A DNA stretch of 64,000 nt from Pseudomonadota bacterium. GTDB lineage: Bacteria > Pseudomonadota > Gammaproteobacteria > Steroidobacterales > Steroidobacteraceae. This document shows positions 47,506-63,035 of the stretch, in pieces (position 1 is the first letter of the stretch; every line of letters starts with the position of its first letter). Made by a program: the position numbers and the translations under genes. Under the pieces are notes generated by a model. The model saw only the letters and a list, made by a program, of their open reading frames with translations, had not been told where the DNA came from and did no database searches. The stretch is from assembly GCA_021838635.1 (NCBI GenBank), contig JAKCDC010000003.1, forward strand, positions 1-64,000, given 5' to 3'.

Positions 47506-49005
47506 TCAGGACGCGGCCGGCTCCTCCACACGCGCGGCGCGCCGCGCCGTCGGATGCCACAGCTCCTGGATCGACTCGAGCGTGCGACCCTTGGTCTCCG
47601 GCACGAAGCGCAACACGAACAGCCCGGCCAAGATCGCCCCGGCGCTGTAGAGCCAGTAGGCGAAACCGTGATTGAAATGCCGGTTCAGGTAGGCACTGCC
47701 GTCGAGCATCGGGAACGTCATCGAGACGATGAAGTTCATGATCCACTGCGCGCCGATCGCAATCGACATCGCCTTGCCGCGGATCGCATTCGGATAGATT
47801 TCCGCGAGCATGACCCACACCACCGGCCCCCAGGAGAATGAAAAGCCCATGATGTAGAGCACGACGGCGCCGATTGCCAGATAGGACGCGCCGCTCGCCC
47901 GCCCCGCCGCGGCATGGCCGCCAGCGCTCACCAGGTGCAGGTCGAACAGCAAACCGATCACGATCATCGCAGCGGCCATCACGAACGCGCCGGCCACCAG
48001 CAGCGGCTTACGCCCCAGCCGATCGACTGTGAAAGTCGCCGCCAGCGTGAACACCGTCATCGTCACCCCGACGAACGTTGCCGACTCCCAGTACGCCTGG
48101 TTGGTCGATGCGCCCATGTTCTCGAACATGTGCGGCGCGTAGTACAGCACCGCGTTGATACCGACCAGCTGCTGAAAGGCCGACAGCGCCACGCCGACCA
48201 CCAGCACCAGCGCACCAAAGGACAGCAGCGGGCGAGTATGTTCGATCAGTGTCGCCTTGATCTCATTCAGTGTTGATTGCGCACTGTCGGTGCCGACCAG
48301 CCGCTTCAGCAGCGCCAGCGCCTCCGCGTCGCGGTCCTTGAGCACCAGAAAACGCGGGGTCTCTGGCACCAGGGACATGAACACGATCAGCAGCGCAGCG
48401 GGAATGGCCGCCGAGGCGAGCATGTGCCGCCAGGCGGTCTGGAGCAGGTACGCGCGGCTGTGTCCGGACTGGATCAGCCAGTTGACGAAGTACACCAGAT
48501 TGATGCCGACGACGATGGCGATCTGCTGGAACGTCACCAGCATGCCGCGCGTCTCAGGCGGCGCGACTTCAGCGATATACATCGGGGCGAGCATGGAGGC
48601 CATGCCGATCGCCGTGCCGCCCATCACCCGATAGAAGAGAAACGCCGGCAGCGCACGGTCCCCGACCGCACCGAACAGGCTCCAGAAGAACTCTGGATAA
48701 CCGGCGCCCAGCGAGGAGACCAGAAACAGCACCCCGGCGATGAGCAGTCCCGCCCGCCGCCCGATGCGCGTCGAGACCGGGCCGGCGACGGCTGCCCCGA
48801 GCACACACCCGAGCAGCGCGATCGAGATGGCCAGGCCGGAGAGAAGGTTCGCATCCGCCGCGTCGAGATGACGTGGGGTCACGAAGTTATGCGTGATCGC
48901 GCTCGTGACGCCGGAGATCACCGCCGTGTCGTACCCGAACAACAGCCCGCCCAAGGTCGCCGCGGCGGTCAGCGCCACCACGAGCCCGGTATTGCCTCTG
49001 CTCAT
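47506..49005 (-). CDS. Sugar porter of the major facilitator superfamily
   Basis: Inner-membrane sugar/proton symporter, 499 residues with 12 predicted helices. Family signatures are GGLLFGYDTAVISG in helix 1, RIGRR between helices 2 and 3, LVPETPRFLV before the central loop, a second half with LQ-type FQQLVGINAVLYY, DRLGRKPLL, and the C-terminal RFVPETKGRTLE. This is the XylE/GalP/AraE branch, carrying xylose, galactose, glucose or arabinose. It follows the LacI gene and has a perfect operator 17 bases upstream. It is the best candidate importer for monosaccharides released by the nearby glycosidases. Confidence 0.95.
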   Translation of the reverse strand: MSRGNTGLVVALTAAATLGGLLFGYDTAVISGVTSAITHNFVTPRHLDAADANLLSGLAISIALLGCVLGAAVAGPVSTRIGRRAGLLIAGVLFLVSSLGAGYPEFFWSLFGAVGDRALPAFLFYRVMGGTAIGMASMLAPMYIAEVAPPETRGMLVTFQQIAIVVGINLVYFVNWLIQSGHSRAYLLQTAWRHMLASAAIPAALLIVFMSLVPETPRFLVLKDRDAEALALLKRLVGTDSAQSTLNEIKATLIEHTRPLLSFGALVLVVGVALSAFQQLVGINAVLYYAPHMFENMGASTNQAYWESATFVGVTMTVFTLAATFTVDRLGRKPLLVAGAFVMAAAMIVIGLLFDLHLVSAGGHAAAGRASGASYLAIGAVVLYIMGFSFSWGPVVWVMLAEIYPNAIRGKAMSIAIGAQWIMNFIVSMTFPMLDGSAYLNRHFNHGFAYWLYSAGAILAGLFVLRFVPETKGRTLESIQELWHPTARRAARVEEPAAS

Positions 49006-49021
49006 CGGAACCCCCTCGTTT

Positions 49022-49035
49022 TGGTATCGCTACCA
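49022..49035. promoter_or_regulatory. LacI-family operator upstream of the sugar porter
   Basis: TGGTATCGCTACCA is a 14-bp palindrome (TGGTA, four bases, TACCA) of the kind bound by LacI-family sugar regulators with TGGTAGCGATACCA-like sites. It lies between the LacI gene end and the porter start codon, so the regulator would block porter transcription. Confidence 0.7.
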
Positions 49036-49074
49036 TGTCTCCCGGGGACCCATCTTGTCAAGCCTCAGCGAACC

Positions 49075-50139
49075 TCAGGCGGCGCTTCTGGGGCGTGCCG
49101 CCGACTCGCGCGTGATCAGTTCGTGAGCGACCTGGCGGTGTACCGGCTCGGCAGCCGCGCCGCGTCGTCCGCCGCGCACCGCAGCGACCAACATATCGAC
49201 CGCTTCGCCGGCCATCTGCGCAATAGGCTGATGGATGGTGGTCAGCCCCGGCCAGATGTTCGCCGCAATCAGGCTGTCGTCGAAGCCGACCACGGTCAGA
49301 TCGTTTGGCACCTCCAGACCGCGGCGGTGCGCCTCGGCCATGACGGCCGCCGCCATGTCATCGTTGCTGGCGAAGATCGCGGTCGGTAGCGGCTCGACGG
49401 CGAGCAGCTTGCCGGCGGCATCGAGGCCAGAGCGGAACGTGAAGAAGCCCTGCTCGACGCGTGGCTCGGGCAGTTTCCCGTGCTCCTCGACCGCGGCGGC
49501 AAAGCCCCGCCAGCGCTCCTCGCTCGCGGTCTGATTCGGGTGACCCTTGATGAAACCGAGTCGGGTATGTCCGAGCGCCAGCAGATACTGGGTCATCTCG
49601 CGTGCCGCAGCGAAATCGTCGATGCTCACACACATGGCATCGGCGGGCGGTCGACCCGCGGCCACGGCCACGATGCGCATGCGCGCGGCCTGCAGTTCCG
49701 CGCGGATCACCGCCGACTCGCACAGCGGCGGCGGCAGCACCACGCCGACGACGCCGCCAGCGACCAGGCGGCGGACCGCACGGCGGGAAGCCGCCGGCGT
49801 CATCTCACACTTCTCCAGCACCAGCTGCACACCGTGGCGGGTCGCGGCATCAAGCGCCCCGACCAGAAATTCGCTGAGGTAGGAGGCGCTCGGATTGCCA
49901 TAGAGCAGCCCCATGCGCTCGCCGCGGGCACTGGCCAGATTGCGCGCGGCAAGATTCGGTGAGTACCCGAGCTGGCGCACGGCCTGCATGACCGTCTGAC
50001 GCGTCACGTCGCTCACGTACTGGCCGCCGTTGACCACGCGCGAGACGGTCATCGGCGAGACGCCCGCGTACCGCGCAACGTCTTTGATGGTCACGCTGCG
50101 GCGGGCGCCGCTTCGGGATTTACGCGCCGGTTTGTTCAT
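49075..50139 (-). CDS. LacI-family sugar-responsive repressor
   Basis: A 354-residue repressor. Residues 15-70 form the LacI helix-turn-helix and hinge: TIKDVARYAGVSPMTVSRVV, then YSPNLAARNLASA. The rest is a periplasmic-binding-protein-like effector domain (LGHTRLGFIKGHPNQTASEE; IFASNDDMAAAVM; GFDDSLIAANIWPGLTTIHQ). It heads a two-gene unit with the sugar porter. The palindrome between them is its presumed operator; control of the glycosidase operon by the same protein is possible but no matching site was found there. Confidence 0.93.
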   Translation of the reverse strand: MNKPARKSRSGARRSVTIKDVARYAGVSPMTVSRVVNGGQYVSDVTRQTVMQAVRQLGYSPNLAARNLASARGERMGLLYGNPSASYLSEFLVGALDAATRHGVQLVLEKCEMTPAASRRAVRRLVAGGVVGVVLPPPLCESAVIRAELQAARMRIVAVAAGRPPADAMCVSIDDFAAAREMTQYLLALGHTRLGFIKGHPNQTASEERWRGFAAAVEEHGKLPEPRVEQGFFTFRSGLDAAGKLLAVEPLPTAIFASNDDMAAAVMAEAHRRGLEVPNDLTVVGFDDSLIAANIWPGLTTIHQPIAQMAGEAVDMLVAAVRGGRRGAAAEPVHRQVAHELITRESAARPRSAA

Positions 50140-50425
50140 CGATCTTCTGCGTTCTTCTCAGTGGCGGTCTATTGCGGCCAACGCATGGGCAGAGGCACTT
50201 TAACACAGGCACAACAGCCCGATCGCCGCCCTGCTCCCAGCGTTCGATGGACTCCCCGTCCCGCACCGCAGGGAGATTGCGCGCATCCTGCATATGATAA
50301 CGGAACCAGTCCGACCCCGGCCGCCGGATATCCGCTTCGACGCAGCGCCGCGCCCCACCCGGCCGGCGCCTCGCAAAGACGCCTTGAAGGGGTGCGCGGC
50401 ATTCTCTACCCTCGCAGAGCGCTGT

Positions 50426-51331
50426 ATGGCGCTCCCGCCCTTCTCCGAGAGTTGTCCCGTGCCCAGCACCGCTTCCGCGATTCAGCAACCGCATCCGGGC
50501 CGCCGGATTGTGCGCCAGGGGCTGCCGCGCCGTCGCTGGCAGGATCTGTATCACGTGTTCATGACCATCAGCTGGCCGCGGCTGTTCATAAGCTTCGCCG
50601 GCTTCTTCTGCACATTCAACCTGCTGTTTGCGGCAGTCTACTCGCTGCAGGCCAACGACATCGCGCACGTCAATCCGCCGGGCTTCTGGGGCCGCTTTTT
50701 CTTCAGCGTCGAAACACTCGCCACCGTCGGCTACGGGGACATGCACCCGCAGACCCTCTTCGCGCACATCATCGCCTCGTTTGAGATCTTCGTCGGCATG
50801 ATGAGCTTGGCGCTGATTGCCGGGATGATGTTCGCGCGTTTCTCGCGGCCGACCGCCCGGATCCTCTTCGCCCACCACGCGGTCATCCGCCCGCTCGACA
50901 GCCAACCGACCCTGATGCTGCGCGCCGCCAACGAGCGGCATAACGTGATCATGGAGGCGCAGGCACGTCTGCGCCTGGTGCGCGACGAACAGAGCGTCGA
51001 GGGCTTCCAGATACGGCGCGTGCACGACCTGCCGCTGCGCCGCAGCGAGCAGCCGGCGTTTCTCCTCGGCTGGACGTTGATGCACACATTGACGCCCGAC
51101 AGTCCCCTCGCGAGCGCCACGACCGAGAGTCTGCGGGCCGAGAATGCATTTCTGATTCTGACGATCCTCGGTATCGACGAGACGACCGGACAGACGCTCA
51201 TGGCTCGCCACGAATACCTGCCCGACATGCTGCGCTGGCGGCACTCGTTCGCCGATATCCTCATTGCGGGCGCCGATGGAATCGATCGGATCGACTACAG
51301 CCGTTTTCACGATATCGAGCCGTTCGTCTGA
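50426..51331 (+). CDS. Inward-rectifier potassium channel (KirBac type)
   Basis: A 301-residue K+ channel: two membrane helices (WPRLFISFAGFFCTFNLLFA; AHIIASFEIFVGMMSLAL) around the selectivity filter TVGYGDM, then a C-terminal immunoglobulin-like cytoplasmic domain (RPTARILFAHHAVI; LMLRAANERHN; GWTLMHTL). This is the layout of bacterial Kir channels, gated by lipids and pH. The start at 50426 or a GTG at 50459 are both possible. It is divergent from the LacI gene and converges with the GH74 gene, and does not belong functionally with either in any obvious way. Confidence 0.93.
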   Translation: MALPPFSESCPVPSTASAIQQPHPGRRIVRQGLPRRRWQDLYHVFMTISWPRLFISFAGFFCTFNLLFAAVYSLQANDIAHVNPPGFWGRFFFSVETLATVGYGDMHPQTLFAHIIASFEIFVGMMSLALIAGMMFARFSRPTARILFAHHAVIRPLDSQPTLMLRAANERHNVIMEAQARLRLVRDEQSVEGFQIRRVHDLPLRRSEQPAFLLGWTLMHTLTPDSPLASATTESLRAENAFLILTILGIDETTGQTLMARHEYLPDMLRWRHSFADILIAGADGIDRIDYSRFHDIEPFV

Positions 51332-51346
51332 AGTGCCGCGGCGGCT

Positions 51347-53566
51347 TTAGCGCCGGCGCGGATCACCGTAGATGATCCCGCGCCCGTCGGTGCCGACGTA
51401 GACACGGCCAAAAATCCGCGGGTCACCCGCGATGCACCGAAAGCGCTGACCGTAACGGTGCCGCTTCCCGTTCAACCGGCGCCAATGTCGTCCGATGTCC
51501 TCCGAACGCCAGATGGCGAGCACGTGATGGTACCGGGCCAACGCATACAGCGTCGGATAATGATGGCCCGGTGGCGCCTTGCCGAACCCCAGCGCGACCA
51601 CGTGCACACCACCGTTCACTGCCCGGAAGGTCCGGCCTGCATCGCGGGAGTGGAAAAGTCCCGCTCGGCTCACAAACCACAGATCCCCGGGGCGCCCCGG
51701 CGTCGCCATGAGCGGCCACTGCTGCTCTGGTGAGCGCGGCTGATCGGGCGTAAGGCGTTGTGGCAACCCCCGGGTTTCACGTTGGTGAAACACCGCACCG
51801 CCATCGGTGCTCACGAACAGCCCGCCCGTGCGCAAATCAATCGCGTAAAACCTACCGGCAGCGGCGCGGTCCGCGATCGGATGAGTGCCGCGGGGCAGAC
51901 CGCGTACCTTGTGCCAACTCGCCCCGTGGTCACGCGTGAATTGCGGGGTTGCCGTGATGGCGATGAACGTGCGCCCGCGCGGCGAGACGACGATCTGCCC
52001 GGTTGAGCCGGGGGCCCGCAGCGGGTGCCAGGCGCGACCATAGTCAAGCGAGTACGCCAGCGTCGGTGCACCCGGCGCCGAGCGCGGTGCCCGCGTTCCG
52101 CCGCGCACCACCACGGCGGGCGCAAGGCCGGCCTCGTCGATGTCATCCGTGTTGGCAAAGACCGGATGAACGAATTGCTCGCTGGGCGAGCGGCCCAGGT
52201 GCTCATGCGCAAATCCGCTGAGATCCCCGAAGCCGCTGAGCAGATGCGGACCGTGCGGGGGACTGACCAGCGTCAACACCGCAGTCTGCTCCACGCCGCG
52301 CACCCAGGGCTTCCACAGCACCTCGCGGCCGCGACCAAGGTTGCTCAGCGTATCAGTGGCGTACACCGTCGCACCTGTGGTGTAGGCCGCATGGGACGGG
52401 TCGAACGGGTCAATTGCGATTCCGGCGATCCACCAACCGAAGCGAGCATGCGCACCGCCCCAACGCAGAAAGGGCGTGGCAGCGACATCGCGCCGACTAT
52501 GCGCGCGCACGTTTTGCCACAGCCGGCCACCATCGAGCGAGCGCCACAGGATGTCGCCGCCCCGCCAGCGATCCACCGTCGCCACGAGCAGCAGTCCGGG
52601 CCGGGCGGCATCGACCGCCAATCCCATGAAGCCGCCTTGACTTGGCCCGGAGGCCGCCGGCGGGGTGATGTTGCGCCAACGGCCGTTGTGCGTGTCATAG
52701 CGATAGACGGCACCTGCGGTAATGCCATTGGGACCGACGCCGTTGCTGTACGTGATGTAGAGCCGCCCGCGTGCCCCAAGCGCGCCCTGCACCGGCAGCA
52801 GATCCGCAGCAGGTTGTCCGGGCACGGCACGCCACGTTACGCCGCCGTCGGTCGAACTCAACAGGTGCGCCCGCCCGGCCACAGTCAACCCGACAAAGAG
52901 GCGCTGCGAGGGATGCCCGGGTGAGCCGCTGGCCGGATCCGGCACGACGAAGCTGATGCCGGCCTGTCCGGGCGGCGAGGCGCGCCAGCCGCGCCCTCGC
53001 CACGGAAAGGACGTCACCTGCCGCCAGTGTGCACCCCGATCGACGCTACGCTGAAGTCCATCGTAGCGGGAACCGAAGTACAGGATGGCCGGATCGTTCG
53101 GATCGACCGCCAGACGCTCCCCGAGGCCGCGCCCGGGCATGTTGCCGCCCATGCGAAACGGCGTCGGAAAGATCCGCCAATGCGCCCCGCGGTCGCGCGA
53201 GCGCAAAATGGCGGCCGGCTGGTTCGGATACATTCCGGCCGCCACGTACAATACATTCGCATTGCGCGGGTCGAGTGCGATGCTCTCGATGCCGAAGTCA
53301 CTCGATACGCCGAGCTGATCCTCGAGCGCCCGCCAGCGCCGCTGCCGCTCACTCCAGCGGTACACCCCGCCCATGTCGGTGCGCAGGTACGCCAAACCAC
53401 GCTGGAGCGGACTGAATACGATCGCGGGCGCAAAACCGCCTCCGCCGACGCGCACGCTGCGCCAACGGTACGGCACCACACTGTGCGCCGCGAGCGCCGG
53501 CAGCGCGAAGCACGCGCCTGCGAGCAGCACCGCGCTCCGCGCAGTCCACCCGCTCAGGTGCCGCAC
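51347..53566 (-). CDS. GH74 endo-xyloglucanase
   Basis: Secreted enzyme predicted to cut the beta-1,4-glucan backbone of xyloglucan. The 739 residues have a signal peptide (SAVLLAGACFALPALA) and two seven-bladed propellers built from sialidase-like repeats (for example ILRSRDRGAHWRIFPTP and RSVDRGAHWRQVTSFPW). Likely catalytic aspartates are Asp64 (RTDMGGVYRW) and Asp448 (GDLSGF), the conserved GH74 positions. The GTG at 53566 is chosen: it begins the signal peptide and overlaps the upstream epimerase gene by 13 bases; the open frame further upstream is an artefact of that gene. Last gene of the operon. No carbohydrate-binding module is present. Confidence 0.92.
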   Translation of the reverse strand: MRHLSGWTARSAVLLAGACFALPALAAHSVVPYRWRSVRVGGGGFAPAIVFSPLQRGLAYLRTDMGGVYRWSERQRRWRALEDQLGVSSDFGIESIALDPRNANVLYVAAGMYPNQPAAILRSRDRGAHWRIFPTPFRMGGNMPGRGLGERLAVDPNDPAILYFGSRYDGLQRSVDRGAHWRQVTSFPWRGRGWRASPPGQAGISFVVPDPASGSPGHPSQRLFVGLTVAGRAHLLSSTDGGVTWRAVPGQPAADLLPVQGALGARGRLYITYSNGVGPNGITAGAVYRYDTHNGRWRNITPPAASGPSQGGFMGLAVDAARPGLLLVATVDRWRGGDILWRSLDGGRLWQNVRAHSRRDVAATPFLRWGGAHARFGWWIAGIAIDPFDPSHAAYTTGATVYATDTLSNLGRGREVLWKPWVRGVEQTAVLTLVSPPHGPHLLSGFGDLSGFAHEHLGRSPSEQFVHPVFANTDDIDEAGLAPAVVVRGGTRAPRSAPGAPTLAYSLDYGRAWHPLRAPGSTGQIVVSPRGRTFIAITATPQFTRDHGASWHKVRGLPRGTHPIADRAAAGRFYAIDLRTGGLFVSTDGGAVFHQRETRGLPQRLTPDQPRSPEQQWPLMATPGRPGDLWFVSRAGLFHSRDAGRTFRAVNGGVHVVALGFGKAPPGHHYPTLYALARYHHVLAIWRSEDIGRHWRRLNGKRHRYGQRFRCIAGDPRIFGRVYVGTDGRGIIYGDPRRR

Positions 53567-54447
53567 GACTCGCAACTCAGCGTCACGCGCGCTCGCAGCG
53601 TCTCCCCCGGTGCGAGCAATCGCAGACCGCTCACCGCGGGCGGTTCGGCGCGGTTCAGCGCATCGGGCATGTGACTGACCGGCTCGATGCACAGGAACGC
53701 CTCTCCGGGCGGACTGTACACGTGCAGCCAGCGCAGTGGTTCTTGGGCCTCGATGCGGACACACAGTTGCGCCTCCGGCAGCACCAGTTCCACGCGACCG
53801 TTCCAACCGGAATAACAATGATCCACGAGTGTCTGCGGCACGGGCGCAGCGCTGCGGAAATCCCAAATCTGCCCCGGCCGCGCCAGCGCCGTCGGCAAGC
53901 ACTGCTCGTCGGCGAGCCACACACCCTCGACCATCGCGCGCAGGCGGGCAGCCGGGGTGCGGCGCAGATAAGGATGCCAGCCAATGCCCGCAGGCATCGG
54001 TTCGGCGGCGTGGTTCTGCAGTTCGAGCACGACATCGAGTCCCGACTTGCTCAGCGTGAAGACCTGTCGTGCCCGGTACGCCCAGGGCCACTCCCCGCCG
54101 GTATAGTCGTAGACGAGCGCCAAATGCTCCGCCTCGAGCGCTTCGATCGTCCAGGGTTCTCGCCAGGCTTGCCCGTGCAGCGGATGAGCCTGATCCGGCG
54201 CATTCGGCTGCAGTTGCACGGCGCGAGCTCCGATACGAAAACGCCCATGCGCGATGCGGTTGGCAAACGGCATCAGCGCGAATCCACTGCTCTTGAGCGG
54301 CTCATCGATCTCAGGTGCCGCCCGGCGCAGCACCTCCTGCCCTTGAAATTGCAGCCCCGCAAGCGCACCGCCCAGGTGCGCCAGAACCTCGAGCGCGTAG
54401 CCATGCTGCGCGATTCGAATCGGCTGGGCTGCGGATGACTCACTCAC
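53554..54447 (-). CDS. Aldose 1-epimerase family (GalM-like)
   Basis: Cytoplasmic mutarotase-type protein, about 297 residues with no signal peptide. Recognisable parts are FALMPFANRIAHGRF, the catalytic-His segment HPLHGQAWREPW, AGIGWHPYLRR and the C-terminal acid region FLCIEPVSHMPDA. GalM enzymes interconvert alpha and beta anomers of galactose, glucose or xylose, helping metabolism of sugars freed by the glycosidases. GTG at 54447 with GAGG seven bases upstream is preferred to GTG at 54459. It lies between GH29 and GH74 in the operon, with overlap into GH74. Confidence 0.88.
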   Translation of the reverse strand: MSESSAAQPIRIAQHGYALEVLAHLGGALAGLQFQGQEVLRRAAPEIDEPLKSSGFALMPFANRIAHGRFRIGARAVQLQPNAPDQAHPLHGQAWREPWTIEALEAEHLALVYDYTGGEWPWAYRARQVFTLSKSGLDVVLELQNHAAEPMPAGIGWHPYLRRTPAARLRAMVEGVWLADEQCLPTALARPGQIWDFRSAAPVPQTLVDHCYSGWNGRVELVLPEAQLCVRIEAQEPLRWLHVYSPPGEAFLCIEPVSHMPDALNRAEPPAVSGLRLLAPGETLRARVTLSCESCGT

Positions 54448-54488
54448 GTTTGACCTCACTGACGTCTCTGATCATGTCGCCTCGACTA

Positions 54489-56321
54489 TCAACTCAGATG
54501 GACACGCAGCGCGAGCGCATACGTATCGTTGTCCCGGCATGGCGGCAGCGTAACACTGAGGCCTGCGCCGCTCTGGTGCCACCGCAAAGCCCGTTCATCT
54601 CCCAAAATCTCCACCTGTCTGATCGGCCCCGGCCGCGTCGGCGCGTCCGTACCGAGTGAACGGATCAGCAACCCTTCCGTGGGCCACCCGAGCGCGATCG
54701 CGTACACCACGGTCGCGGCCTTGTTGCGCGTGAAGCGGATATCGACGGCCGAGAGCTGCTGCACGCTCTTGCCCTGAAAGGAGCCCGGGTGGATGACACT
54801 CGGACCCTCCCCGTACACGGTCCACGGCCGCGTCGCGTAGATCGCCTCCCCATTCACTGCGAGCCATGCACCGATCTTATGCAGAATCAGCCGCTCCTTC
54901 GCATCGATCGTGCCATCGGGCTTGCCCGGCACGTTCAGGATGAACGTGCCGTTCTTGCTCACCGTGTCGATCAACCAGTGAACGACTTCGCGCGGATGCA
55001 TGTAGCCGCCGAACTCCCCGGGCTGATCATACAGCGCGCGCAGGTAATGCCAATTGCCGAGGCAGGTTTCGGACTGCCAGGGATAGGTACGGATTCGCGC
55101 ACTCAGTCCGCGCTCGATGTCCGCGACCACGGATTTCTCCAGCCGCGCCGGGACCTTCTTCACCGTAATGACCCCGTCGACCGACCCACCGTGCCGCGCC
55201 AGGCTGCGGTTGTAGTAGTACGCGCCCAGGTTCATTCCGCCCCAGCCGAGCGGCAGCAACGGGTTGTCGAAATAGAGCAGATCCGGTTCGTGCTGGTCGA
55301 TCAGGTCGCGCGTGCGATCGTAGAAGTTCTTCACGTACGAGACATCCGGCAGCGCATCGAACGGATGCTTCGGTCCGTAGAGCTGCTGCGGATCGTAACC
55401 CTCCCACCATTGCCCCCTGCCGTGGGCGAGCGTCAGATGCCCATCATAGGGTATGCCCGCGTAGGGACCGCTGCGGTCCGCCCCGTGTGCCGTCTGAAAC
55501 CACCACCAGTTGCGCGCCTGATGCACCGTGACCCCGAAGCGCAATCCGCGCCGCCGCGCCGCCTGCGCCCAGGTGCCAATCACATCGCGGTGCGGACCGA
55601 TATTGTGTGCATTCCAGGGATGGTGCACGGACTTCCACGCGTCAAAACCATCGTGATGATTGGCGAGCGCGAGAAACAGCTTCGCACCGGTGCGCACATA
55701 CAGATCCATCAGCTCATCGGGCTGCCAGTTCAGCAGTGTCCACTGCGCGCACAGGTCCTTGTAGCCGAACCGGGAGGGATGACCATAGTGTGCCAGCTGG
55801 TAATCGTACTGCTCGGTCTCGACCCCGTACTTCGTCCCCCCCTGGATGTACATGTTGCGCGCATACCAGTCGCCGTCCTCCGGCACGCATTGCGGACTCC
55901 AGTGGTTCCAGATGCCGAACTTCGCGTCGCGGTACCACTGCGGACATTCGTAATGAAGGAGCGACTCCCAGGTTGGTGCGTACGGACCCTGCCCCGCCAG
56001 ACCGGCAAGCGGGGCGCACATGGGCACGCCGTCCCAGGACCCCCCGGGCAGCGGCAACCGCGGCGGATGTCCCCAACCGCTCGGCCGCCAGCGCGCCTCG
56101 TTCAGCCGCTCCGCGGTGATCGCGTGTCCGCGCAGCGCGTAGAAGACACGTTCACGTTCCGGGATCGCGCAAAACTGAGCGTAGTCATATGTATCACGGT
56201 CGAAGCCGCGCGGGGTCCGGGACGGTTCGCTCAACGGCTGCGCCGCCGCGCCTTTTGGCAAGGGCAGCGACGCAGCAGCCGCCGTACCGGCCACCAATTT
56301 GAAGAAATGTCGTCGTCGCAT
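54489..56321 (-). CDS. GH29 alpha-L-fucosidase
   Basis: Exo-enzyme releasing alpha-L-fucose. The 610-residue protein has an RRRHFF leader with an Ala-rich hydrophobic segment, so it is exported, possibly by Tat. The GH29 core includes WYRDAKFGIWNHWSPQCVPE, FLALANHHDGFDAW and GVTVHQARNWWWF; the nucleophile is Asp352 in LLYFDNPLLPLG. NGTFILNVPGKPDG marks the end of the catalytic domain, followed by a beta-sandwich. In xyloglucan the fucose is alpha-1,2-linked to galactose, a bond usually handled by GH95; this enzyme would be a GH29 solution. Confidence 0.93.
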   Translation of the reverse strand: MRRRHFFKLVAGTAAAASLPLPKGAAAQPLSEPSRTPRGFDRDTYDYAQFCAIPERERVFYALRGHAITAERLNEARWRPSGWGHPPRLPLPGGSWDGVPMCAPLAGLAGQGPYAPTWESLLHYECPQWYRDAKFGIWNHWSPQCVPEDGDWYARNMYIQGGTKYGVETEQYDYQLAHYGHPSRFGYKDLCAQWTLLNWQPDELMDLYVRTGAKLFLALANHHDGFDAWKSVHHPWNAHNIGPHRDVIGTWAQAARRRGLRFGVTVHQARNWWWFQTAHGADRSGPYAGIPYDGHLTLAHGRGQWWEGYDPQQLYGPKHPFDALPDVSYVKNFYDRTRDLIDQHEPDLLYFDNPLLPLGWGGMNLGAYYYNRSLARHGGSVDGVITVKKVPARLEKSVVADIERGLSARIRTYPWQSETCLGNWHYLRALYDQPGEFGGYMHPREVVHWLIDTVSKNGTFILNVPGKPDGTIDAKERLILHKIGAWLAVNGEAIYATRPWTVYGEGPSVIHPGSFQGKSVQQLSAVDIRFTRNKAATVVYAIALGWPTEGLLIRSLGTDAPTRPGPIRQVEILGDERALRWHQSGAGLSVTLPPCRDNDTYALALRVHLS

Positions 56322-56360
56322 CGCGGACAGTTACTCCGCAGTCTGAACCGTGCGGTGCGG

Positions 56361-57731
56361 CTAGCGCCGCAGCCGGTAGAGCACCGAGCCGTGTGCGGCA
56401 AGCGGCACCGTCAGGGCATCCGCGCGGCCGAGATCGCGCCGCTGCCACAAGTCACGGAGCCGGTATCGGCCCGGTGCCAACCCGAGCGTTCGCCACGACA
56501 CGCTCAGCGTGCGCGCCTTGGCGGCCAGATTGAAGGCCGCCAGATACCACCCATTGCCATGCTGCGGCCGTGACGTCCACACCACGAACGCGTTGCGGGC
56601 GAGAACTTGGCGGGCGTCCCGCGCCTGCTGGTCGACCGCGATGACCTCCGGATCATCGAGCAACGAGAGCGTCCAGCGATTCATGTGCGTCAGGTTTGCG
56701 CCGATCATCAACGGTGAACGGGCAATGCACCAGAGCGTCATGTAGGTGCGTTGCTCGGCGTGGGTCAAGCGGCTCCAGCGCGCCGAGCCCCATCCTGGTC
56801 TCGGGCCTAGGTAACCGATCGCGAGCATGTCCGCATCCGGCCAGTGCCCGGGACGGGCCAGCGGCGCCCAGCGGGCAAGGCGCTTGAACTGATTTTCCAC
56901 GCCCTGTGGATACGCCTGCGCGCTGTGCCACAGATCCCAGACATCGTTCGAAATGCGCCACAGATTGGCATCGTGGCGAAGCTGCGCGAGCCGGCTGAGG
57001 GGTGCGGGTCCGGGCGAGAGGCTGAGCACTATCGGCCGTCCCGCGTCCCGTACCGCACGCGCCAGCATGCGAATCTCCGCCGCCGCGTACGGGTGACTCG
57101 CGATACAGTCCGCCTTGATGAAGTCGACACCCCAGCGGGCATAAAGCCGGACGATCGAATCGTAGTAGGCCTGGCCTGCAGCATTAGCCGCAACGCCGTC
57201 ATTGTCCGGATTCCAGGGGCACGGGGCGTCGGCCGAGGCCGCCTGCCGGGCGTGAAACGCAGAGCCGGCAATTGGCAAATTCTCACGTACCGCCTGCACG
57301 GGAATACCACGCAAGATGTGGATGCCGAACTTCAGCCCCAGCGAATGCACGTAGCGCGCGAGCGGTCCGAAGCCCTTTCCACCCACCGCGGACGGAAATC
57401 GGTTCGGTGCCGGCAGATAGCGGCCGTAGCGATCGAGCGTGATGACCGAACCCTTCGCGCCACCGGAGGGCGTCGGATTGCGCACGAACCACTCCGCATC
57501 AATCACCGCGTACCGCCAGCCATAACGGCGCAGATGCTGGCTCATCCAACGCACGTTGGCGCGAAACTGCGCTTCCGTAATGGTGGTGCCATAGGCGTCG
57601 TAGCTGTTCCACCCCATCGGCGGGCGGCGGGCCAGTTGCCGCGCACCGGCGAGCGCCGCCGAGCACAGCAGCAGCGCAGCCGCAGTGCCCACGATGCGAC
57701 CCAGCGCAGCAAGTGCGGTGCGCCAGCTCAT
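56361..57731 (-). CDS. GH27 alpha-galactosidase / beta-L-arabinopyranosidase
   Basis: Exported retaining glycosidase, 456 residues with a signal peptide ending LLLCSAALAG. The catalytic barrel opens RRPPMGWNSYDAYGTT; the nucleophile is Asp208 (FIKADC) and the acid/base Asp263 (RISNDVWD); the C-terminal beta domain begins after RQVLARNAFVVW. GH27 contains alpha-galactosidases and beta-L-arabinopyranosidases; the second would fit rare arabinopyranosyl decorations, the first galactomannan or galactoxyloglucan-type substrates. Its ATG overlaps the GH31 stop, showing coupling. Confidence 0.93.
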   Translation of the reverse strand: MSWRTALAALGRIVGTAAALLLCSAALAGARQLARRPPMGWNSYDAYGTTITEAQFRANVRWMSQHLRRYGWRYAVIDAEWFVRNPTPSGGAKGSVITLDRYGRYLPAPNRFPSAVGGKGFGPLARYVHSLGLKFGIHILRGIPVQAVRENLPIAGSAFHARQAASADAPCPWNPDNDGVAANAAGQAYYDSIVRLYARWGVDFIKADCIASHPYAAAEIRMLARAVRDAGRPIVLSLSPGPAPLSRLAQLRHDANLWRISNDVWDLWHSAQAYPQGVENQFKRLARWAPLARPGHWPDADMLAIGYLGPRPGWGSARWSRLTHAEQRTYMTLWCIARSPLMIGANLTHMNRWTLSLLDDPEVIAVDQQARDARQVLARNAFVVWTSRPQHGNGWYLAAFNLAAKARTLSVSWRTLGLAPGRYRLRDLWQRRDLGRADALTVPLAAHGSVLYRLRR

Positions 57732-60634
57732 GCGCCCGTCCCGGGAGCGCGCACGCAGGCTGCGCAGTGCACGCGAACGGCGCGACCCGAATAGGTCACA
57801 ACCGCGTCCGCCGGGGCTTTGAAGTCATCCCCGGAGGGTGCTCCGGGTTCGATCCAGCGGATGCGAAACTGCCGCGTGTGCACCATGCCGGGGAACGAGC
57901 CGCTGCGTGCGCCGATCGAGAGCGTGCCGTCGGTCTGATCATACGAGAACGGAATCAGCGAATACTGACCGTGCCGGTAGCCCCGGTTGATGCCCTGATC
58001 CTCATACAACGTGAAGCGTCCGTTGTGCCCGGTATAGACGAGCAGCGTGATCGGTGCACCGGGTCGCTCGCCGGTGTATTGGATTGCCGGTCCCACCGGT
58101 ACGATCGAGCCTGCCCGCACGAACAGCGGCAGTCGTGCCAGCGGCGCCGCCACCGTTACATTCTTGCCGCCGCGGTAGACCCGGTTGGTGAAGAAGTCAT
58201 ACCAGTTCACCCCCGCAGGCAGATACACCCGCCATCGGCGCGCCCGGTACCGATATACGGGGCTGACCAGGAACGCCGGCCCGAACATGTACTCCGTGGC
58301 AATGCTGCGCACACGCGGGTCGCTCGGGAAGTCCATCTCCAATGCCCGCATGATCGTGCCGTTCTTGCGCCACGTGTCGCCAGCGAGCGTATAGATGTAG
58401 GGCATCAGTCGGTAGCGCAGTTGGTCGTAGGAGACCAGGATGCGGTAGATCCTCGTACCCGGCGGGGAAAGATTGTAGATCTCCCGATGAGGCTTCTGTC
58501 CATGCGAGCGGAAGATCGGACAGAACGCGCCGAACTCGAACCAGCGTGTATTCAGCTCACGCCACTCGGCAAGATTGGCCGCGTTCGGATGTACGTAGCG
58601 GCTCTCAGGCTGATAGCCGCCGATATCCATCGTCCAGTTCGGCAATCCCGAGAGCGAGAAGCTGATGCCGGCAGCAATCTGATTCTTCATGTCGGACCAC
58701 CGTGGCGCAATGTCGCCGCTCCACACCGCCGCGCCGCAGCGCTGCAGGCCGGCGAAGCCCGAGCGAGACAGGATGAACGCGCGTCGATCCGGCCGGAATC
58801 GAAGGTTGCCGTGATACACCCCGCAGACATGCTCCAGCGCATACGCGTTGAAGAGCGCCGCACCGGGTCCCAGCGGGGTCGGCGTCATGAAGGCTTCACG
58901 CTCGGCGATGCTGGTGTTCGACACCATGTCCGGCTCGTCAGCGTCCAGCCACCAGGCATCCACGCCGAGCACCCCAAGGGTGTGCTGGATCTGGCTCCAA
59001 TACAAATGCCGTGCGGCCGCCGAGAACGGATCGTAGAACCCGAACGTATAGCCCGGCCCAACCCAATCTTTGATGCCGAGTTTCTCCGGCAGCGTAAACA
59101 TACCGCCGATCTTCGCCAGTGCCTTGAAATGTCGCGTGCTCGGATAGAATTTCGGCCATACCGAAATCATGAAGTGCGCGTGCAGCGCATGCACCTCGGC
59201 AATCATTGCCCGCGGATGGGGGTAGCGCTTCGGATCGAAGCGATCCGAACCCCAGGCGTCATCCTTCCAATAGCGCCAGTCCTGCACGATGTTGTCGAGC
59301 GGAATGCCGAGTGCGCGGTACTTGCGCACCACGCCGAGCAGTTGGTGTTGGGTGTGATAGTGATCCCGGCTCTGCCAGAATCCGTACGCCCAGCGCGGCA
59401 GCAGCACCGCCCGGCCGGTAACGTAGCGGTATCCAGCGATGACCTGATTTAGGTCCGCACCATGAATGAAGTAATAGTCAATCGCCCGACCGGCTTGCGA
59501 AAAAAGTGACAGCCGGTGGCGCACCGCCGCCGGCCGCGGCGGACGATGCAATAGCGCGATGTAACCTCCGTCACGATGCCAGACCAGACGAATCGGGACT
59601 CGTTGACCGGCTCGCAGACGCACGCGGAAGTTCCGATACCAGGGATTCCAGTTCTGCCGCCACGCGTTGATGATCTGGCGGCCGCCGATCCACAGCCGCT
59701 GATAATCGCTGCCATACAGACTGAACGTGTGCAACCCGCTGGTGCGCGCCTCGATCTGTCCCGTCCACACCACTTTCACGTGATGCAGCTTGGCCAGCGC
59801 CTTCGGAAAGGAGCGCGGATATCGCGCGTGCCAGGTCAGGTACTGGTAATCGATATTACGCTCGGTCCTCTCCAGCACCAGCTGGCCATGCACGTAGTAG
59901 CGCGCCGTAAGTCCGCCACGGCGTCCCTGCGCATTGTAGAGAATCAGACTCTTTGAGAGCTGCTGCCAGGGTCGTGGATTGCCGAAGCGCGTAATTGATG
60001 TATTGTCCCAGAGGATGCCATAGTCGCGGCTCGACACCACAAACGGCACGACGACATTCATGTTGTGCTGCGCGAGCGTGAGGCTTCGACCCTTGTAGTC
60101 GATGAGACCGGTCTGGTGCTGTCCGAGCCCGTAGAACGCCTCTCCCGGGGTCGATTCGAACTGCTGGCGAATCGTAAAATACGGATCGCCATCGATCTTC
60201 ACCGGCTTGAAGCTACTGCCACCAGGCAATTCGCGCGAGATCACATCACCGTTCGAGTTGCGAAAGATGACCTGTCCGTCGCCCAGACGCACCTGCGCGG
60301 TCAACTCAACAGTGCTGAGCCAAACGGAATTTCCGGTCCGACGCACCGTGAACGACACGTGCGAACCGGCGGTACGAACCGCCATGAGGCTCTTGGGCAG
60401 CGTTAGATTCGAACCCGGAAATGCCGTCACCCGGAAAATCTCAGGCGTAAGCACCTCGATGCGCACTCGCCGTGCCGCCCCGGAATACGGTGTCACAATG
60501 AGGCCGTCGGCTATCTTCTCCACCGCCCCGCTGGCGCGTGCCGCGCCCGTCGCCAGCACCGCAGCAAGTACGGCCCATCCCAGCAGGCCGCCTTTCAAAA
60601 GGCGGCGGAGCGCCGTGAAATCGCTTTGTGACAT
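57728..60634 (-). CDS. GH31 alpha-xylosidase with PA14 insert
   Basis: Releases alpha-linked xylose from the non-reducing end of xyloglucan oligosaccharides. The 968 residues have a signal peptide, an N-terminal beta-sandwich (GEAFYGLGQHQTGLIDYKG), and an inserted PA14-like domain at about 250-375 (SGLHTFSLYGSDYQRLWIGG, VRLRAGQRVPIRLVWH). The catalytic barrel follows, with nucleophile Asp564 in WWLDADEPD, DIGGYQPE and FCPIFRSHG. The PA14 insert is the hallmark of xyloglucan-specific GH31 enzymes such as Cellvibrio japonicus Xyl31A, where it helps bind longer oligosaccharides. AGGGA lies before the ATG. Confidence 0.95.
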   Translation of the reverse strand: MSQSDFTALRRLLKGGLLGWAVLAAVLATGAARASGAVEKIADGLIVTPYSGAARRVRIEVLTPEIFRVTAFPGSNLTLPKSLMAVRTAGSHVSFTVRRTGNSVWLSTVELTAQVRLGDGQVIFRNSNGDVISRELPGGSSFKPVKIDGDPYFTIRQQFESTPGEAFYGLGQHQTGLIDYKGRSLTLAQHNMNVVVPFVVSSRDYGILWDNTSITRFGNPRPWQQLSKSLILYNAQGRRGGLTARYYVHGQLVLERTERNIDYQYLTWHARYPRSFPKALAKLHHVKVVWTGQIEARTSGLHTFSLYGSDYQRLWIGGRQIINAWRQNWNPWYRNFRVRLRAGQRVPIRLVWHRDGGYIALLHRPPRPAAVRHRLSLFSQAGRAIDYYFIHGADLNQVIAGYRYVTGRAVLLPRWAYGFWQSRDHYHTQHQLLGVVRKYRALGIPLDNIVQDWRYWKDDAWGSDRFDPKRYPHPRAMIAEVHALHAHFMISVWPKFYPSTRHFKALAKIGGMFTLPEKLGIKDWVGPGYTFGFYDPFSAAARHLYWSQIQHTLGVLGVDAWWLDADEPDMVSNTSIAEREAFMTPTPLGPGAALFNAYALEHVCGVYHGNLRFRPDRRAFILSRSGFAGLQRCGAAVWSGDIAPRWSDMKNQIAAGISFSLSGLPNWTMDIGGYQPESRYVHPNAANLAEWRELNTRWFEFGAFCPIFRSHGQKPHREIYNLSPPGTRIYRILVSYDQLRYRLMPYIYTLAGDTWRKNGTIMRALEMDFPSDPRVRSIATEYMFGPAFLVSPVYRYRARRWRVYLPAGVNWYDFFTNRVYRGGKNVTVAAPLARLPLFVRAGSIVPVGPAIQYTGERPGAPITLLVYTGHNGRFTLYEDQGINRGYRHGQYSLIPFSYDQTDGTLSIGARSGSFPGMVHTRQFRIRWIEPGAPSGDDFKAPADAVVTYSGRAVRVHCAACVRAPGTGA

Positions 60635-60650
60635 GAATCGTCCCTCGAGG

Positions 60651-62279
60651 TCAGTAAGTCGCCAGGTGCACGTGCAGCACTTGCGGGATGGACGTGAAGT
60701 TCAGTCCCCAGTCGGTCTCATCGCCGTTCCATAGGCGCATGAATTGCCACGTGCCATGGTGATAAGTGCCTTGCACAACACGATCCAAAATCATGAACTG
60801 ATTAGATCGCGGTTGGGTCAAGGCGAACGACACCCGTACGTGCACTCCGGTGACCAAAAACTCGTTCGGACCGAGCTGAGCAATAAGCGCGCCGCCCTCG
60901 AGCGGTCGAGCCCGGGCATCCGGGGTATTGCCGAAGGCGGGCATATTGTAGGAAACTCGTGCCTCCCACCGACCTAGCTTGACGATTTGCGCATGAGCGT
61001 CGTCGGGTTCAGAAACGGCATGCAGTCGGCCCTGGAAGCTCAGACGCGCCAGAAGTGAATCCATCGGTCTGATCAGATGGTATTCCAGCGCAAACGGCGC
61101 GAGTGTACGCGGGTCTATCCGGCGCGCGCCCAGCGGGAAATTCGAGTAGCCAGTGTAATCAATACCGAACGGCGAAAAACCGATTCCTTGGTGTCCGAGC
61201 GTGGCGAATAGATAGCGTGCATACACTACGGAACTACCCGTCTCGCTGACGAACAATGGATTGTCAGCTAAATGATACTGCTGCAACACTTTGAAGTACC
61301 GTCGTGAGTCCGGCATATAGATATCGGGCCCGATGAGATTTATCGCCGGAGCTGCCACCTTCCATACGGGCAGCGCATCGTTGGTCGGCCCCCCGCTCTC
61401 ATAGGTGATAGGCGGCCCAGGGTGGAACGGGTCGCGCAACGCGGCATTGACGTACATCGGCAGCGGATAGACCGCCTTGCCGGCGGCGGCAACCTTATCG
61501 ACGAAGCGCGCAATGTTCCAGGCGTGGAAGAACTCCCCCGCCTTCTCGCCGAATACCTGTCGCCAGGTTCCCCGACGCAGATGCAGCGCACGAACAAGAC
61601 GGCGCGGAACCGGACCATCGAACAACCGATCGGCCCGCGCCGAGTAATCGCGTACGGCTCCCCAGGTACCGGTCTCGTTCTCCACCTGCACCATGATCAC
61701 TGTGTGCTGGGGATCCACAGCTCGTAAATGACGCATCAGCGCCACGAAAGCGCTTCGGTCAGCATCGAGGGTGGTCTTTGCGAGGGGAGAAAGGGAGTAG
61801 ACCGGTTGTCCTTGCCGATTAACCATGCGTGGGAAGCGGCGATTATCCAGCTTTACCCAAGACGGAGCATACTGCGGGCCGCCGTTCTTCCAGGTCGCAA
61901 ACCACAGGATAATGGCATGCAAGTGGTGCTGGCGAGCTTGCTTCAAGAAAAGATCCAGGAAGGAAAAATTGTACTGGTTCTCGGTCGGTTCGATTTGCTC
62001 CCAAGCAATCGGCATCACTACCGTATTTGCATCGACGTCCGACATGGCCGGCCAAACCTCGGGCAGCATCGCCGGATAGTTGCTCGAGTTATTGACCTGC
62101 GCGCCGAGAATCAGATAGGGCTTGCCCCCCACCTTAAGCTCATAGCGCCCATCCGCACCAATGAGCCGCGGCATCGGGACTCCTGACCCGGCCCACACTG
62201 GGATGTTCGCAGCGGCGCAGAGAATTAGAAATGCACCAACGGCCCGTAGTACTCGGGCTCCATACGCAAAATATTTCAT
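60651..62279 (-). CDS. GH35 beta-galactosidase with DUF5597-type C-terminus
   Basis: Removes beta-galactose, as from xyloglucan L-side chains. The 542 residues have a signal peptide (AVGAFLILCAAANIPVWAG) and a TIM barrel with PIAWEQIEPTENQYNFSFLD. The acid/base is Glu202 (VQVENETG) and the nucleophile Glu346 (VSETGSS). The C-terminal part is the short DUF5597-like domain rather than the long jelly-roll domains of classic lactases, as in Cellvibrio japonicus Bgl35A. The start at 62279 follows an AGGGGGG ribosome site. It is the first gene of the operon, 16 bases from GH31. Confidence 0.93.
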   Translation of the reverse strand: MKYFAYGARVLRAVGAFLILCAAANIPVWAGSGVPMPRLIGADGRYELKVGGKPYLILGAQVNNSSNYPAMLPEVWPAMSDVDANTVVMPIAWEQIEPTENQYNFSFLDLFLKQARQHHLHAIILWFATWKNGGPQYAPSWVKLDNRRFPRMVNRQGQPVYSLSPLAKTTLDADRSAFVALMRHLRAVDPQHTVIMVQVENETGTWGAVRDYSARADRLFDGPVPRRLVRALHLRRGTWRQVFGEKAGEFFHAWNIARFVDKVAAAGKAVYPLPMYVNAALRDPFHPGPPITYESGGPTNDALPVWKVAAPAINLIGPDIYMPDSRRYFKVLQQYHLADNPLFVSETGSSVVYARYLFATLGHQGIGFSPFGIDYTGYSNFPLGARRIDPRTLAPFALEYHLIRPMDSLLARLSFQGRLHAVSEPDDAHAQIVKLGRWEARVSYNMPAFGNTPDARARPLEGGALIAQLGPNEFLVTGVHVRVSFALTQPRSNQFMILDRVVQGTYHHGTWQFMRLWNGDETDWGLNFTSIPQVLHVHLATY

Positions 62280-63035
62280 CGCCCCCCCTAGATCCACCTC
62301 AGCTCTGGTTCAATTACATGTTCAATGCGGAACGGTTCTTCGGATCTCGTGTTTGCGAAACACCACCTTAACAATCATCAACCGCACCACGGGAATCCCG
62401 TCCGACAGGTGCTCTGGCGCTACGCCTCACCGCGATTGTCGCGCTGGCGAACTTGTTTGGCGCCGTCGGCCGGTCAAAACTGTACAGTTCCCTGCCGCCA
62501 CGATTACCCAATCCCGGATCACATACAGCCGCGATTGCCATCGCATAAAACCGCAATATCGCGCTGCATACCTGAGAGTGCGGCCCAGGGATGCCGACTG
62601 GATGTGCTGCAAAAAACATTTACGGCTGCCACGGAATAATCGGCTGGAATTCCCAATCTTCTTCCAAGACCCCACAGCCCACACTCGTCACAGATCTTTC
62701 TATTGACAGCACATGATGACTCAGGTGTGTTTGCGCTACCACTGCGAAATTCATAGCCGACCCATTCACATATTCGAATGGCAACTCTCACCCCAATATC
62801 GCGCGCACCAGATAGGCTGTCACCAATGAGAAGGCACGCTACCGCAATAATCTCTGCCTATCATTCGACTTGTTTCATCACAAGCAGTCGAGACGTCTAT
62901 GAGCTATGATAGCGCTCTCATTTCACCGAAAAATGTTCTATAGATCTCGGTCGGGTGAAAATCAGCATATCGGAGTGAACACCACCCAGAGCACGAGTAT
63001 GAATTGCAGGCTCTTTGTTGATTGGGGCGCGCACG
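62280..63035. other. About 755-base AT-richer stretch, probable promoter region
   Basis: No convincing gene is seen on either strand. It must hold the promoter of the glycosidase operon and that of the secreted cysteine-repeat protein. The base composition is clearly less GC-rich than most of the window, continuing the trend of the GH35 gene. No TGGTA/TACCA operator like that at 49022 was found. Confidence 0.5.

What the first reader, a model, noticed from the sequence alone, without database searches (positions are those of the whole stretch)
47506..62279. Compact xyloglucan-utilisation locus in a proteobacterium
Five exported glycosidases (GH35, GH31-PA14, GH27, GH29, GH74) and an epimerase run head to tail on one strand with overlaps or gaps of 16-41 bases. 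Their activities together cover backbone cutting plus removal of fucose, galactose and xylose. A LacI repressor and an XylE-type porter lie beside them. No TonB receptor, GH95 or GH3/GH5 is inside the cluster, unlike known Bacteroidetes, Cellvibrio and Xanthomonas loci, so uptake and final glucoside cleavage must be solved elsewhere or differently.
Basis: partly seen in the sequence, partly recalled or inferred. Interest (0 to 1): 0.8.

Follow-up and report, generated by a model that had tools for sequence, protein, structure and literature searches.

The report
Xyloglucan operon in a xylose regulon
This is a real set of bacterial genes that look built to digest xyloglucan, a plant cell-wall polymer; its apparently missing uptake protein lies just past the window edge, and it differs from known relatives in its fucose-removing enzyme, one oddly altered side-chain enzyme, and a control site shared with neighbouring xylan genes.

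Summary
GH35, GH31-PA14, GH27, GH29, an aldose epimerase and GH74 run head to tail on the minus strand (51347-62279), with gaps of 16, -4, 39, 29 and -13 bases; LacI and XylE-type genes follow. GH31, GH35 and GH74 match solved xyloglucan-type enzymes.

The "no TonB receptor" contrast is largely a window-edge effect: a receptor with two halogenase-like genes lies at 66-72 kb of the same contig, same strand, in a low-GC cassette.

A xyl-box operator (TGNTANCGNTANCA) suggests one XylR-type regulon joining operon, porter, receptor, glucuronoxylan genes, GH3 and the only xylose isomerase found: all 7 exact copies in the assembly lie on this contig.

Real departures from known loci: no GH95 match in the genome, with GH29 present instead, as in 16 of 80 related loci; and a GH27 closest to beta-L-arabinopyranosidases, not alpha-galactosidases, with Ala at the specificity position.

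Verdict: new variant of a known kind, moderate interest. No activity, induction or uptake was shown.

The parts
60651..62279 (-). GH35 beta-galactosidase with DUF5597; first gene of the operon
   Evidence: Pfam; PDB 8fa4, 7kmn, 3u7v, 5jaw/4d1i Bgl35A
57728..60634 (-). GH31 alpha-xylosidase with PA14
   Evidence: PDB 7kmp alpha-xylosidase, 2xvg Xyl31A, 5jou BoGH31A; D564 (WWLDADEPD) and D641 (SGD) invariant in 6 aligned sequences, window included; their catalytic role is recalled
56361..57731 (-). GH27 closest to beta-L-arabinopyranosidase Abp, Ala at the specificity position
   Evidence: 4nx0 E 1.4e-123, 3cc1 E 3.1e-108, next 4nzj (putative alpha-galactosidase) E 1.4e-28; key residue
54489..56321 (-). 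GH29 alpha-L-fucosidase-type enzyme; candidate stand-in for GH95
   Evidence: Pfam; best PDB rows 7ljj/7snk/7lnp (exo-alpha-L-galactosidase / fucosidase), fifth row 4ni3; YFD motif in 15 of the 16 aligned rows that cover it, window included
53554..54459 (-). Aldose 1-epimerase (GalM-like), no signal peptide seen
   Evidence: Pfam Aldose_epim E 3e-44
51347..53566 (-). GH74 endo-xyloglucanase
   Evidence: PDB 2cn2 E 1e-150; the Asp that differs between 2cn2 and 2cn3 is present; start assigned
50294..51331 (+). Inward-rectifier-type K+ channel gene, convergent with GH74
   Evidence: Pfam IRK_C; beside the operon's last gene in 5 of 13 related genomes examined
49075..50139 (-). LacI-family repressor, proposed XylR
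   Evidence: Pfam; 90-98% identical in G025, G023 (partial), G004, G042; 74% in G052
47506..49005 (-). XylE-type sugar porter (MFS)
   Evidence: Pfam Sugar_tr; NCBIfam XylE 565.8 bits, below its cut-off of 608
49022..49035 (.). Exact xyl-box TGGTATCGCTACCA between porter and LacI
   Evidence: exact at the same place in G025, G004, G042
50295..50308 (.). Xyl-box with one mismatch, 156 bases upstream of LacI, at the start of the K+ channel ORF
62728..62741 (.). Xyl-box with one mismatch, about 450 bases upstream of GH35
62907..62920 (.). Xyl-box with one mismatch, about 630 bases upstream of GH35 and 95 bases before the plus-strand ORF at 63015
63015..64000 (+). Secreted-looking 344-aa protein without Pfam hit, running on to contig position 64049. 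Beyond the window on the same contig, minus strand: sulfotransferase-TPR 64242-66188, halogenase-like 66219-67766 and 67776-69332, TonB receptor 69351-72398
   Evidence: contig C64 read as L009

Best explanation
The operon breaks down xyloglucan and is one arm of a xylose-responsive regulon that also handles glucuronoxylan. Proposed steps, all inferred: exported GH74 cuts the backbone outside the cell; the TonB receptor at 69-72 kb, just outside the window, imports the oligosaccharides; in the periplasm GH29 removes fucose, GH35 beta-galactose and GH31 xylose, while GH27 takes off a less usual side-chain sugar (beta-L-arabinopyranose and/or alpha-D-galactose); one of the genome's five GH3 enzymes finishes the glucose backbone; the XylE-type porter takes up xylose, the epimerase helps galactose use, and the xylose isomerase at 104 kb starts xylose metabolism. 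The LacI-type protein is a XylR-like repressor acting at xyl-boxes. Shown by computation: gene identity and order, receptor position, operator distribution, no GH95 match. Not shown: any activity, induction, binding or uptake.
For: Enzyme identities by PDB match. All 7 exact xyl-boxes in the assembly lie on contig C64, 4.6% of it, as do 15 of the 33 at up to one mismatch. Window: 4 sites against 0.31 expected, 0 of 100 shuffles as high; L009: 5 against 0.30, 0 of 200 (two sites shared with the window). Boxes lie before the porter, LacI, the receptor, GH67/mannitol dehydrogenase, GH3 and the single xylose isomerase match, and in the region upstream of GH35, and recur at matching places in same-genus genomes. 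The motif agrees with the Xanthomonas xyl-box TGGTAGCGCTAACA (PMC7748154, PMC10380989; passages). In 80 related loci: 45 exact boxes against 0 for the reversed pattern. The window's receptor has as its only same-genus matches at E 1e-100 the receptors beside GH35-GH31 in G031, G052 and G014.
Against: The two boxes upstream of GH35 here are imperfect and about 450 and 630 bases away; one may serve the plus-strand ORF. At up to one mismatch the reversed control is commoner in the genome (74 against 33), and in the 80 loci one-mismatch sites are 39 against 27, so single imperfect sites mean little. The receptor cassette is foreign in composition (GC 0.51-0.53; operon genes 0.58-0.68), a separate transcription unit, and next to xylan genes. 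Five of 13 related genomes have operon genes with no receptor in that gap. The best PDB row for GH29 is an exo-alpha-L-galactosidase, and those for two box-linked GH3s are beta-xylosidases. No LacI-box binding was shown.
Confidence: 0.77

Rival explanations
1. Mixed-glycan operon: GH74, GH31 and GH35 serve xyloglucan, while GH27 and GH29 trim arabinogalactan-protein side chains (beta-L-arabinopyranose, alpha-L-fucose).
For: Characterised GH27 enzymes of this group act on arabinogalactan (PMC4598101, passages); the GH27 key residue is not the alpha-galactosidase Asp; beta-L-arabinopyranose is not a usual xyloglucan side chain (recalled).
Against: No arabinogalactan-type endo-enzyme is in the operon; GH29 recurs near GH31/GH35 in 16 of 80 loci of several lineages; GH27 stays with GH31 where GH29 and GH74 are missing (G004, G042, G045).
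Confidence: 0.25
2. The receptor cassette at 64-72 kb belongs to the neighbouring glucuronoxylan genes, and xyloglucan oligosaccharides enter by another receptor or are fully degraded outside.
For: It lies between the operon and GH67/uxaC, behind a plus-strand ORF, with foreign GC; the genome has 34 TonB receptor matches.
Against: In G025, G014, G052 and G031 a receptor and two halogenase-like genes are consecutive with GH35-GH31; the window's receptor matches those of G031, G052 and G014 best and is the only hit in this genome at E 1e-60 to the one in G025. In L111, relatives of the cassette's halogenase (53%), sulfotransferase (32%) and 344-aa protein (28%) lie in a GH35-GH31 locus.
Confidence: 0.25
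3. An ordinary Xanthomonas/Cellvibrio-type xyloglucan locus with nothing new beyond gene order.
For: GH35-GH31, GH74, TonB receptor, MFS porter and xylose isomerase are all known parts (PMC8245568, PMC4285296; passages).
Against: No GH95 match genome-wide; no match to the Xanthomonas CE20-type esterase on C64:1-100999; GH27 with Ala; xyl-boxes, exact copies of which are in 0 of 28 Lysobacteraceae-clade loci.
Confidence: 0.2

Closest known systems
Xanthomonas citri xyloglucan utilisation locus (XAC1768-1777; PMC8245568, passages)
   Same: GH74, GH31, GH35, TonB receptor, MFS porter and xylose isomerase linked; GH3 outside the locus
   Different: Here GH29 and no GH95, no CE20 match on C64:1-100999, added GH27 and epimerase, xyl-boxes present, a GH74 only 39-40% identical to the Xanthomonas ones, and a receptor cassette with halogenase-like genes
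Cellvibrio japonicus xyloglucan locus (PMC4285296, passages)
   Same: Bgl35A- and Xyl31A-type enzymes (PA14 in Xyl31A is recalled)
   Different: GH95 there; endo-enzyme not linked there (PMC8245568 passage)
Caulobacter, Brevundimonas and sphingomonad loci found here (within L090-L153)
   Same: GH35-GH31, mostly a TonB receptor, often a halogenase-like gene and xyl-boxes; GH29 and a 47-53% identical GH74 in several
   Different: GH27 in only 5 of 80 loci; epimerase and K+ channel matches only in the two same-genus loci
GH27 Group VI beta-L-arabinopyranosidases (GsAbp, CpArap27; PMC4598101, passages)
   Same: Full-length match to Abp, catalytic Asp pair aligned
   Different: Ala, not Ile, at the specificity position; linked to xyloglucan enzymes
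FgFCO1 and Mfuc5, named in PMC7711723 (passages) as the only two GH29 members found active on xyloglucan
   Same: GH29, proposed removal of xyloglucan fucose
   Different: 4ni3 (FgFCO1, recalled) is only the fifth row among solved structures; no activity shown here

Membership tests
Proteobacterial xyloglucan utilisation locus (Xanthomonas/Cellvibrio type) | Adjacent GH31 of the Xyl31A type and GH35 of the Bgl35A type | tested here: met
Proteobacterial xyloglucan utilisation locus (Xanthomonas/Cellvibrio type) | Linked endo-xyloglucanase (Xanthomonas: GH74) | tested here: met
Proteobacterial xyloglucan utilisation locus (Xanthomonas/Cellvibrio type) | TonB-dependent receptor in the locus | tested here: inconclusive
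   Present 7.1 kb upstream, same strand, separate transcription unit; substrate unknown
Proteobacterial xyloglucan utilisation locus (Xanthomonas/Cellvibrio type) | GH95 alpha-1,2-fucosidase | tested here: not met
   0 matches to PF14498 in the 96.5%-complete genome; the same model scores the Xanthomonas GH95 at 233 bits. The catalytic-domain model was not searched
Proteobacterial xyloglucan utilisation locus (Xanthomonas/Cellvibrio type) | CE20 acetylesterase (Xanthomonas) | tested here: not met
   No tblastn match on C64:1-100999; rest of the genome not searched
Proteobacterial xyloglucan utilisation locus (Xanthomonas/Cellvibrio type) | Growth on, and induction by, xyloglucan | not testable with these tools
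   needs cultures
XylR/xyl-box regulon | xyl-box before porter, xylose isomerase and hemicellulose genes | tested here: met
   the copies before the receptor and GH35 are imperfect
XylR/xyl-box regulon | LacI-type repressor that binds the box and is released by xylose | not testable with these tools
   only the LacI gene and its position were seen
GH27 alpha-galactosidase | Asp at the key specificity position | tested here: not met
   Ala
GH27 Group VI beta-L-arabinopyranosidase | Full-length similarity to GsAbp | tested here: met
   residues 32-454, E 1.4e-123; loops L6-L8 not checked on a structure
GH27 Group VI beta-L-arabinopyranosidase | Ile at the key position (Glu in SaArap27A) | tested here: not met
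   Ala in the window; Glu in G014 and Rhodanobacter sp. B05, Ile in Sphingopyxis indica, Asp in L110
Xyloglucan-active GH29 | Release of fucose from xyloglucan | not testable with these tools
   needs an enzyme assay

The most novel reading that the evidence does not exclude
Proteobacterial xyloglucan loci carry exchangeable modules. A GH29 group with the motif PWQ-(S/T)-x-TC-(I/L)-G, found here in Steroidobacteraceae-type, Caulobacterales and sphingomonad loci, is a xyloglucan alpha-1,2-L-fucosidase that stands in for GH95. The outer-membrane uptake cassette occupies a slot between GH35 and the glucuronoxylan genes that is native, empty or refilled with foreign low-GC DNA in different species of one genus, while shared xyl-boxes keep whichever cassette is present under xylose control. 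The operon's GH27 is a natural Ala-type enzyme that accepts both beta-L-arabinopyranose and alpha-D-galactose.
Probability: 0.3. Interest if true: 0.62.

Novelty: new variant of a known kind. Interest (0 to 1): 0.45.

Why it matters
PMC7711723 (passages) says only two GH29 enzymes had been found active on xyloglucan and that more should exist; 16 of the 80 loci examined here and the window give ready candidates next to xyloglucan enzymes. PMC4598101 (passages) lists 'no examples' of characterised GH27 enzymes with Ala at the specificity position, and reports that the engineered Ala form cuts arabinopyranoside and galactoside about equally; this operon holds a natural case. The shared xyl-box would mean that these bacteria treat xyloglucan as a xylose source, unlike Xanthomonas-type loci, where no exact box was found. 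Halogenase-like genes beside sugar receptors have no function known to me; their place in a defined operon makes that testable.

Tried and rejected
GH95/GH29 mutual exclusion as proof of replacement: 0 of 80 loci have both, with 16 and 29 carriers (hypergeometric P 0.00027), but on the GH31 tree this needs only 3 changes among carriers and the independent-pairs test has no power (p 1). I treat it as suggestive only. 35 of the 80 loci show neither, and many loci are cut by contig ends.

A donor for the low-GC receptor cassette: no other genome of 369 class members matched at E 1e-150, with only up to 2 candidates scored per genome, so a weak negative; in the genus only G031, G052 and G014 at 35-37%. 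The closest kind among fetched loci is L111; no donor is claimed.

Promoter and terminator scans gave no signal above shuffles (2 against 3.7; 8 against 10.0). RNA search found one tRNA-Glu only. The receptor has no PDB sequence match. PADLOC gave only weak TPR-type hits for the sulfotransferase protein. ORF 50120-51310 (minus) is not the epimerase and has no family hit; the gene there is the plus-strand K+ channel. Rejected: GH27 as an alpha-galactosidase acting on xyloglucan galactose; 'no receptor' as a biological novelty. The pentose on Arabidopsis xylan was considered as a GH27 substrate, but PMC4528235 (passages) reports it resistant to a GH27 beta-L-arabinopyranosidase.

Paper searches on halogenases with TonB receptors found nothing useful. 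Searches found no report of GH29 in proteobacterial xyloglucan loci or of xyl-box control of such loci; titles, abstracts and some passages were seen, and most subscription journals are not in that library. Structure prediction was not used.
Full report
Observation. The six genes and their order are as described: GH35, GH31-PA14, GH27, GH29, aldose epimerase and GH74 on the minus strand from 62279 to 51347, with gaps of 16, -4, 39, 29 and -13 bases. LacI and a XylE-type porter follow at 50139-47506.

Enzymes. GH35 is closest to 8fa4, 7kmn, 3u7v and Bgl35A. GH31 is closest to an alpha-xylosidase (7kmp), CjXyl31A (2xvg) and BoGH31A (5jou). GH74 is closest to a beta-1,4-xyloglucan hydrolase, 2cn2. 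GH29 is less clear: the best rows are 7ljj, 7snk and 7lnp, named exo-alpha-L-galactosidase or fucosidase, then 9lxl and 4ni3; 4ni3 is, from recall, the xyloglucan-active FgFCO1. GH27 matches the beta-L-arabinopyranosidase Abp (4nx0, E 1.4e-123) and 3cc1 (3.1e-108) far better than the chains of the alpha-galactosidase type (1.4e-28 at best).

GH27 specificity. PMC4598101 (passages) gives Asp at one active-site position in alpha-galactosidases and Ile or Glu in beta-L-arabinopyranosidases; an engineered Ala form had an Ara:Gal ratio of 1:1.4, was a poor catalyst, and is listed with 'No examples' among characterised enzymes. The window's enzyme has Ala there, as in G025, G023, G004, G042 and G045; G014 and Rhodanobacter sp. 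B05 have Glu, Sphingopyxis indica has Ile, and L110 has Asp.

Receptor. The window is bases 1-64000 of a 158,368-base contig. Beyond its edge, on the minus strand, lie a sulfotransferase-TPR protein (64242-66188), two tryptophan-halogenase-family proteins (66219-69332) and a TonB receptor (69351-72398). The first halogenase-like protein keeps a WxWxIP motif and an FK pair, the second only the FK pair (their meaning is recalled). This cassette has GC 0.51-0.53 and GC3 0.48-0.55, against 0.62-0.69 and 0.75-0.86 for the genes from GH31 to the porter, with GH35 in between at 0.58 and 0.66. GC is 0.50-0.56 in each kilobase from 62 to 73 kb and 0.65 in the next, so the cassette looks acquired.

Same-genus comparison. 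GH31 relatives of any kind were found in 54 of 99 genomes searched, most of them more distant family members. I fetched neighbourhoods from 13 genomes with a close one (12 same genus, 1 same family). In G025, G014, G052 and G031 a receptor and two halogenase-like genes stand next to GH35-GH31 in the same direction; in G023, G004, G042, G045 and G011 mannitol dehydrogenase or GH67 abuts GH35 or GH31 with no receptor between; G060 has a receptor beside GH31. Those receptors are only 28-34% identical to the window's over tblastn segments. Yet in 58 genus genomes the only matches to the window's receptor at E 1e-100, besides itself, are the ones in G031, G052 and G014 (up to 14 candidates scored per genome), and with G025's receptor as query the window's is the only hit in its genome at E 1e-60. 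GH27 is in 6 of the 13 (G025, G023, G014, G004, G042, G045), GH29 in 3 (G025, G023, G014) and GH74 in 2 (G025, G014), with GH74 and GH27 remnants in G037. Several neighbourhoods are cut by contig ends.

Regulation. A palindrome TGNTANCGNTANCA fits the Xanthomonas xyl-box (PMC7748154, PMC10380989; passages). In the window 4 sites occur at up to one mismatch against 0.31 expected. In the assembly all 7 exact copies lie on contig C64 (49022, 75040, 83708, 88110, 88197, 103741, 119250), as do 15 of the 33 at up to one mismatch; the reversed control pattern gives 74, so imperfect sites alone are weak. The copy at 103741 is about 190 bases before the only xylose isomerase match; 75040 is between mannitol dehydrogenase and GH67; 72531 and 72545, both imperfect, are before the receptor; 49022 is before the porter. 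On contig C112 an imperfect copy lies between a GH3 and a divergent ORF with an arabinofuranosidase-domain hit. Sites recur at matching places in related genomes, for example exact copies upstream of GH35 in G025 and G014.

Wider comparison. Matches: GH35 in 68 of 80, TonB receptor 61, GH74 45, CE20-type 43, GH95 29, halogenase-like 25, GH29 16, GH27 5, epimerase 2, K+ channel 2. No locus has both GH29 and GH95, but this follows lineage. Exact xyl-boxes: 45, against 0 for the reversed pattern (one mismatch: 39 against 27); by my count from that listing, 37 of the 45 lie within 300 bases upstream of a tracked gene. They occur in 27 of 43 alphaproteobacterial and Steroidobacter-type loci, 0 of 28 Lysobacteraceae-clade and 0 of 9 Rhodanobacteraceae-clade loci (clades assigned by me from the tree).

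Organism. G025 and G031 have contigs of the same length as JAJZDW010000009.1 (a proteobacterial MAG) and JANWJS010000009.1 (titled Steroidobacteraceae), so the window is probably from an uncultured Steroidobacteraceae-type genus; this rests on contig length and a record title.

Conclusion. The best reading is a xyloglucan operon within a xylose/xylan regulon, with the receptor just outside the window. Its parts are known kinds. The variant features are GH29 without GH95, the Ala-type GH27, xyl-box control, and a receptor slot that differs between species.

Noticed in passing
50294-51331: An inward-rectifier-type K+ channel gene sits beside this sugar operon in the window and in 5 of 13 related genomes examined, with an imperfect xyl-box at its start; why is unclear.
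   Followed up: partly
L009 1016-2050 (contig C64:63015-64049; enters the window at 63015): A 344-aa secreted-looking protein without Pfam hit, whose sequence looks internally repeated by eye; the only relatives among the fetched loci (28%) are near GH35-GH31 in L088 and L111.
   Followed up: partly
C64:66219-69332 (L009 4220-7333): Two tryptophan-halogenase-family proteins beside the TonB receptor; relatives are in 25 of 80 related loci.
   Followed up: partly
60651-62279: GH35 is 75% identical to G025 while GH31, GH27, GH29, epimerase and GH74 are 84-92%, and its GC is lower, so the acquired segment may include GH35.
   Followed up: partly
C64:101998-103677 (L071 1999-3678): A second DUF5597 protein next to the xylose isomerase, with an exact xyl-box between them.
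   Followed up: no
C64:88-101 kb (L010): SGNH hydrolase, glucuronoyl-esterase-like and acetyl-xylan-esterase-like genes, two Cupin_8 genes, a halogenase-like gene and a second TonB receptor; part of the same box-rich stretch.
   Followed up: partly
C64:119292-121196 (L072 293-2197): A 634-aa secreted-looking ORF with an exact xyl-box just upstream (119250) and no Pfam hit; an uncharacterised candidate enzyme.
   Followed up: no
L039 (G037:C20), 16314-16800: Short GH74 and GH27 remnants beside GH31: the operon appears partly deleted in that species.
   Followed up: no
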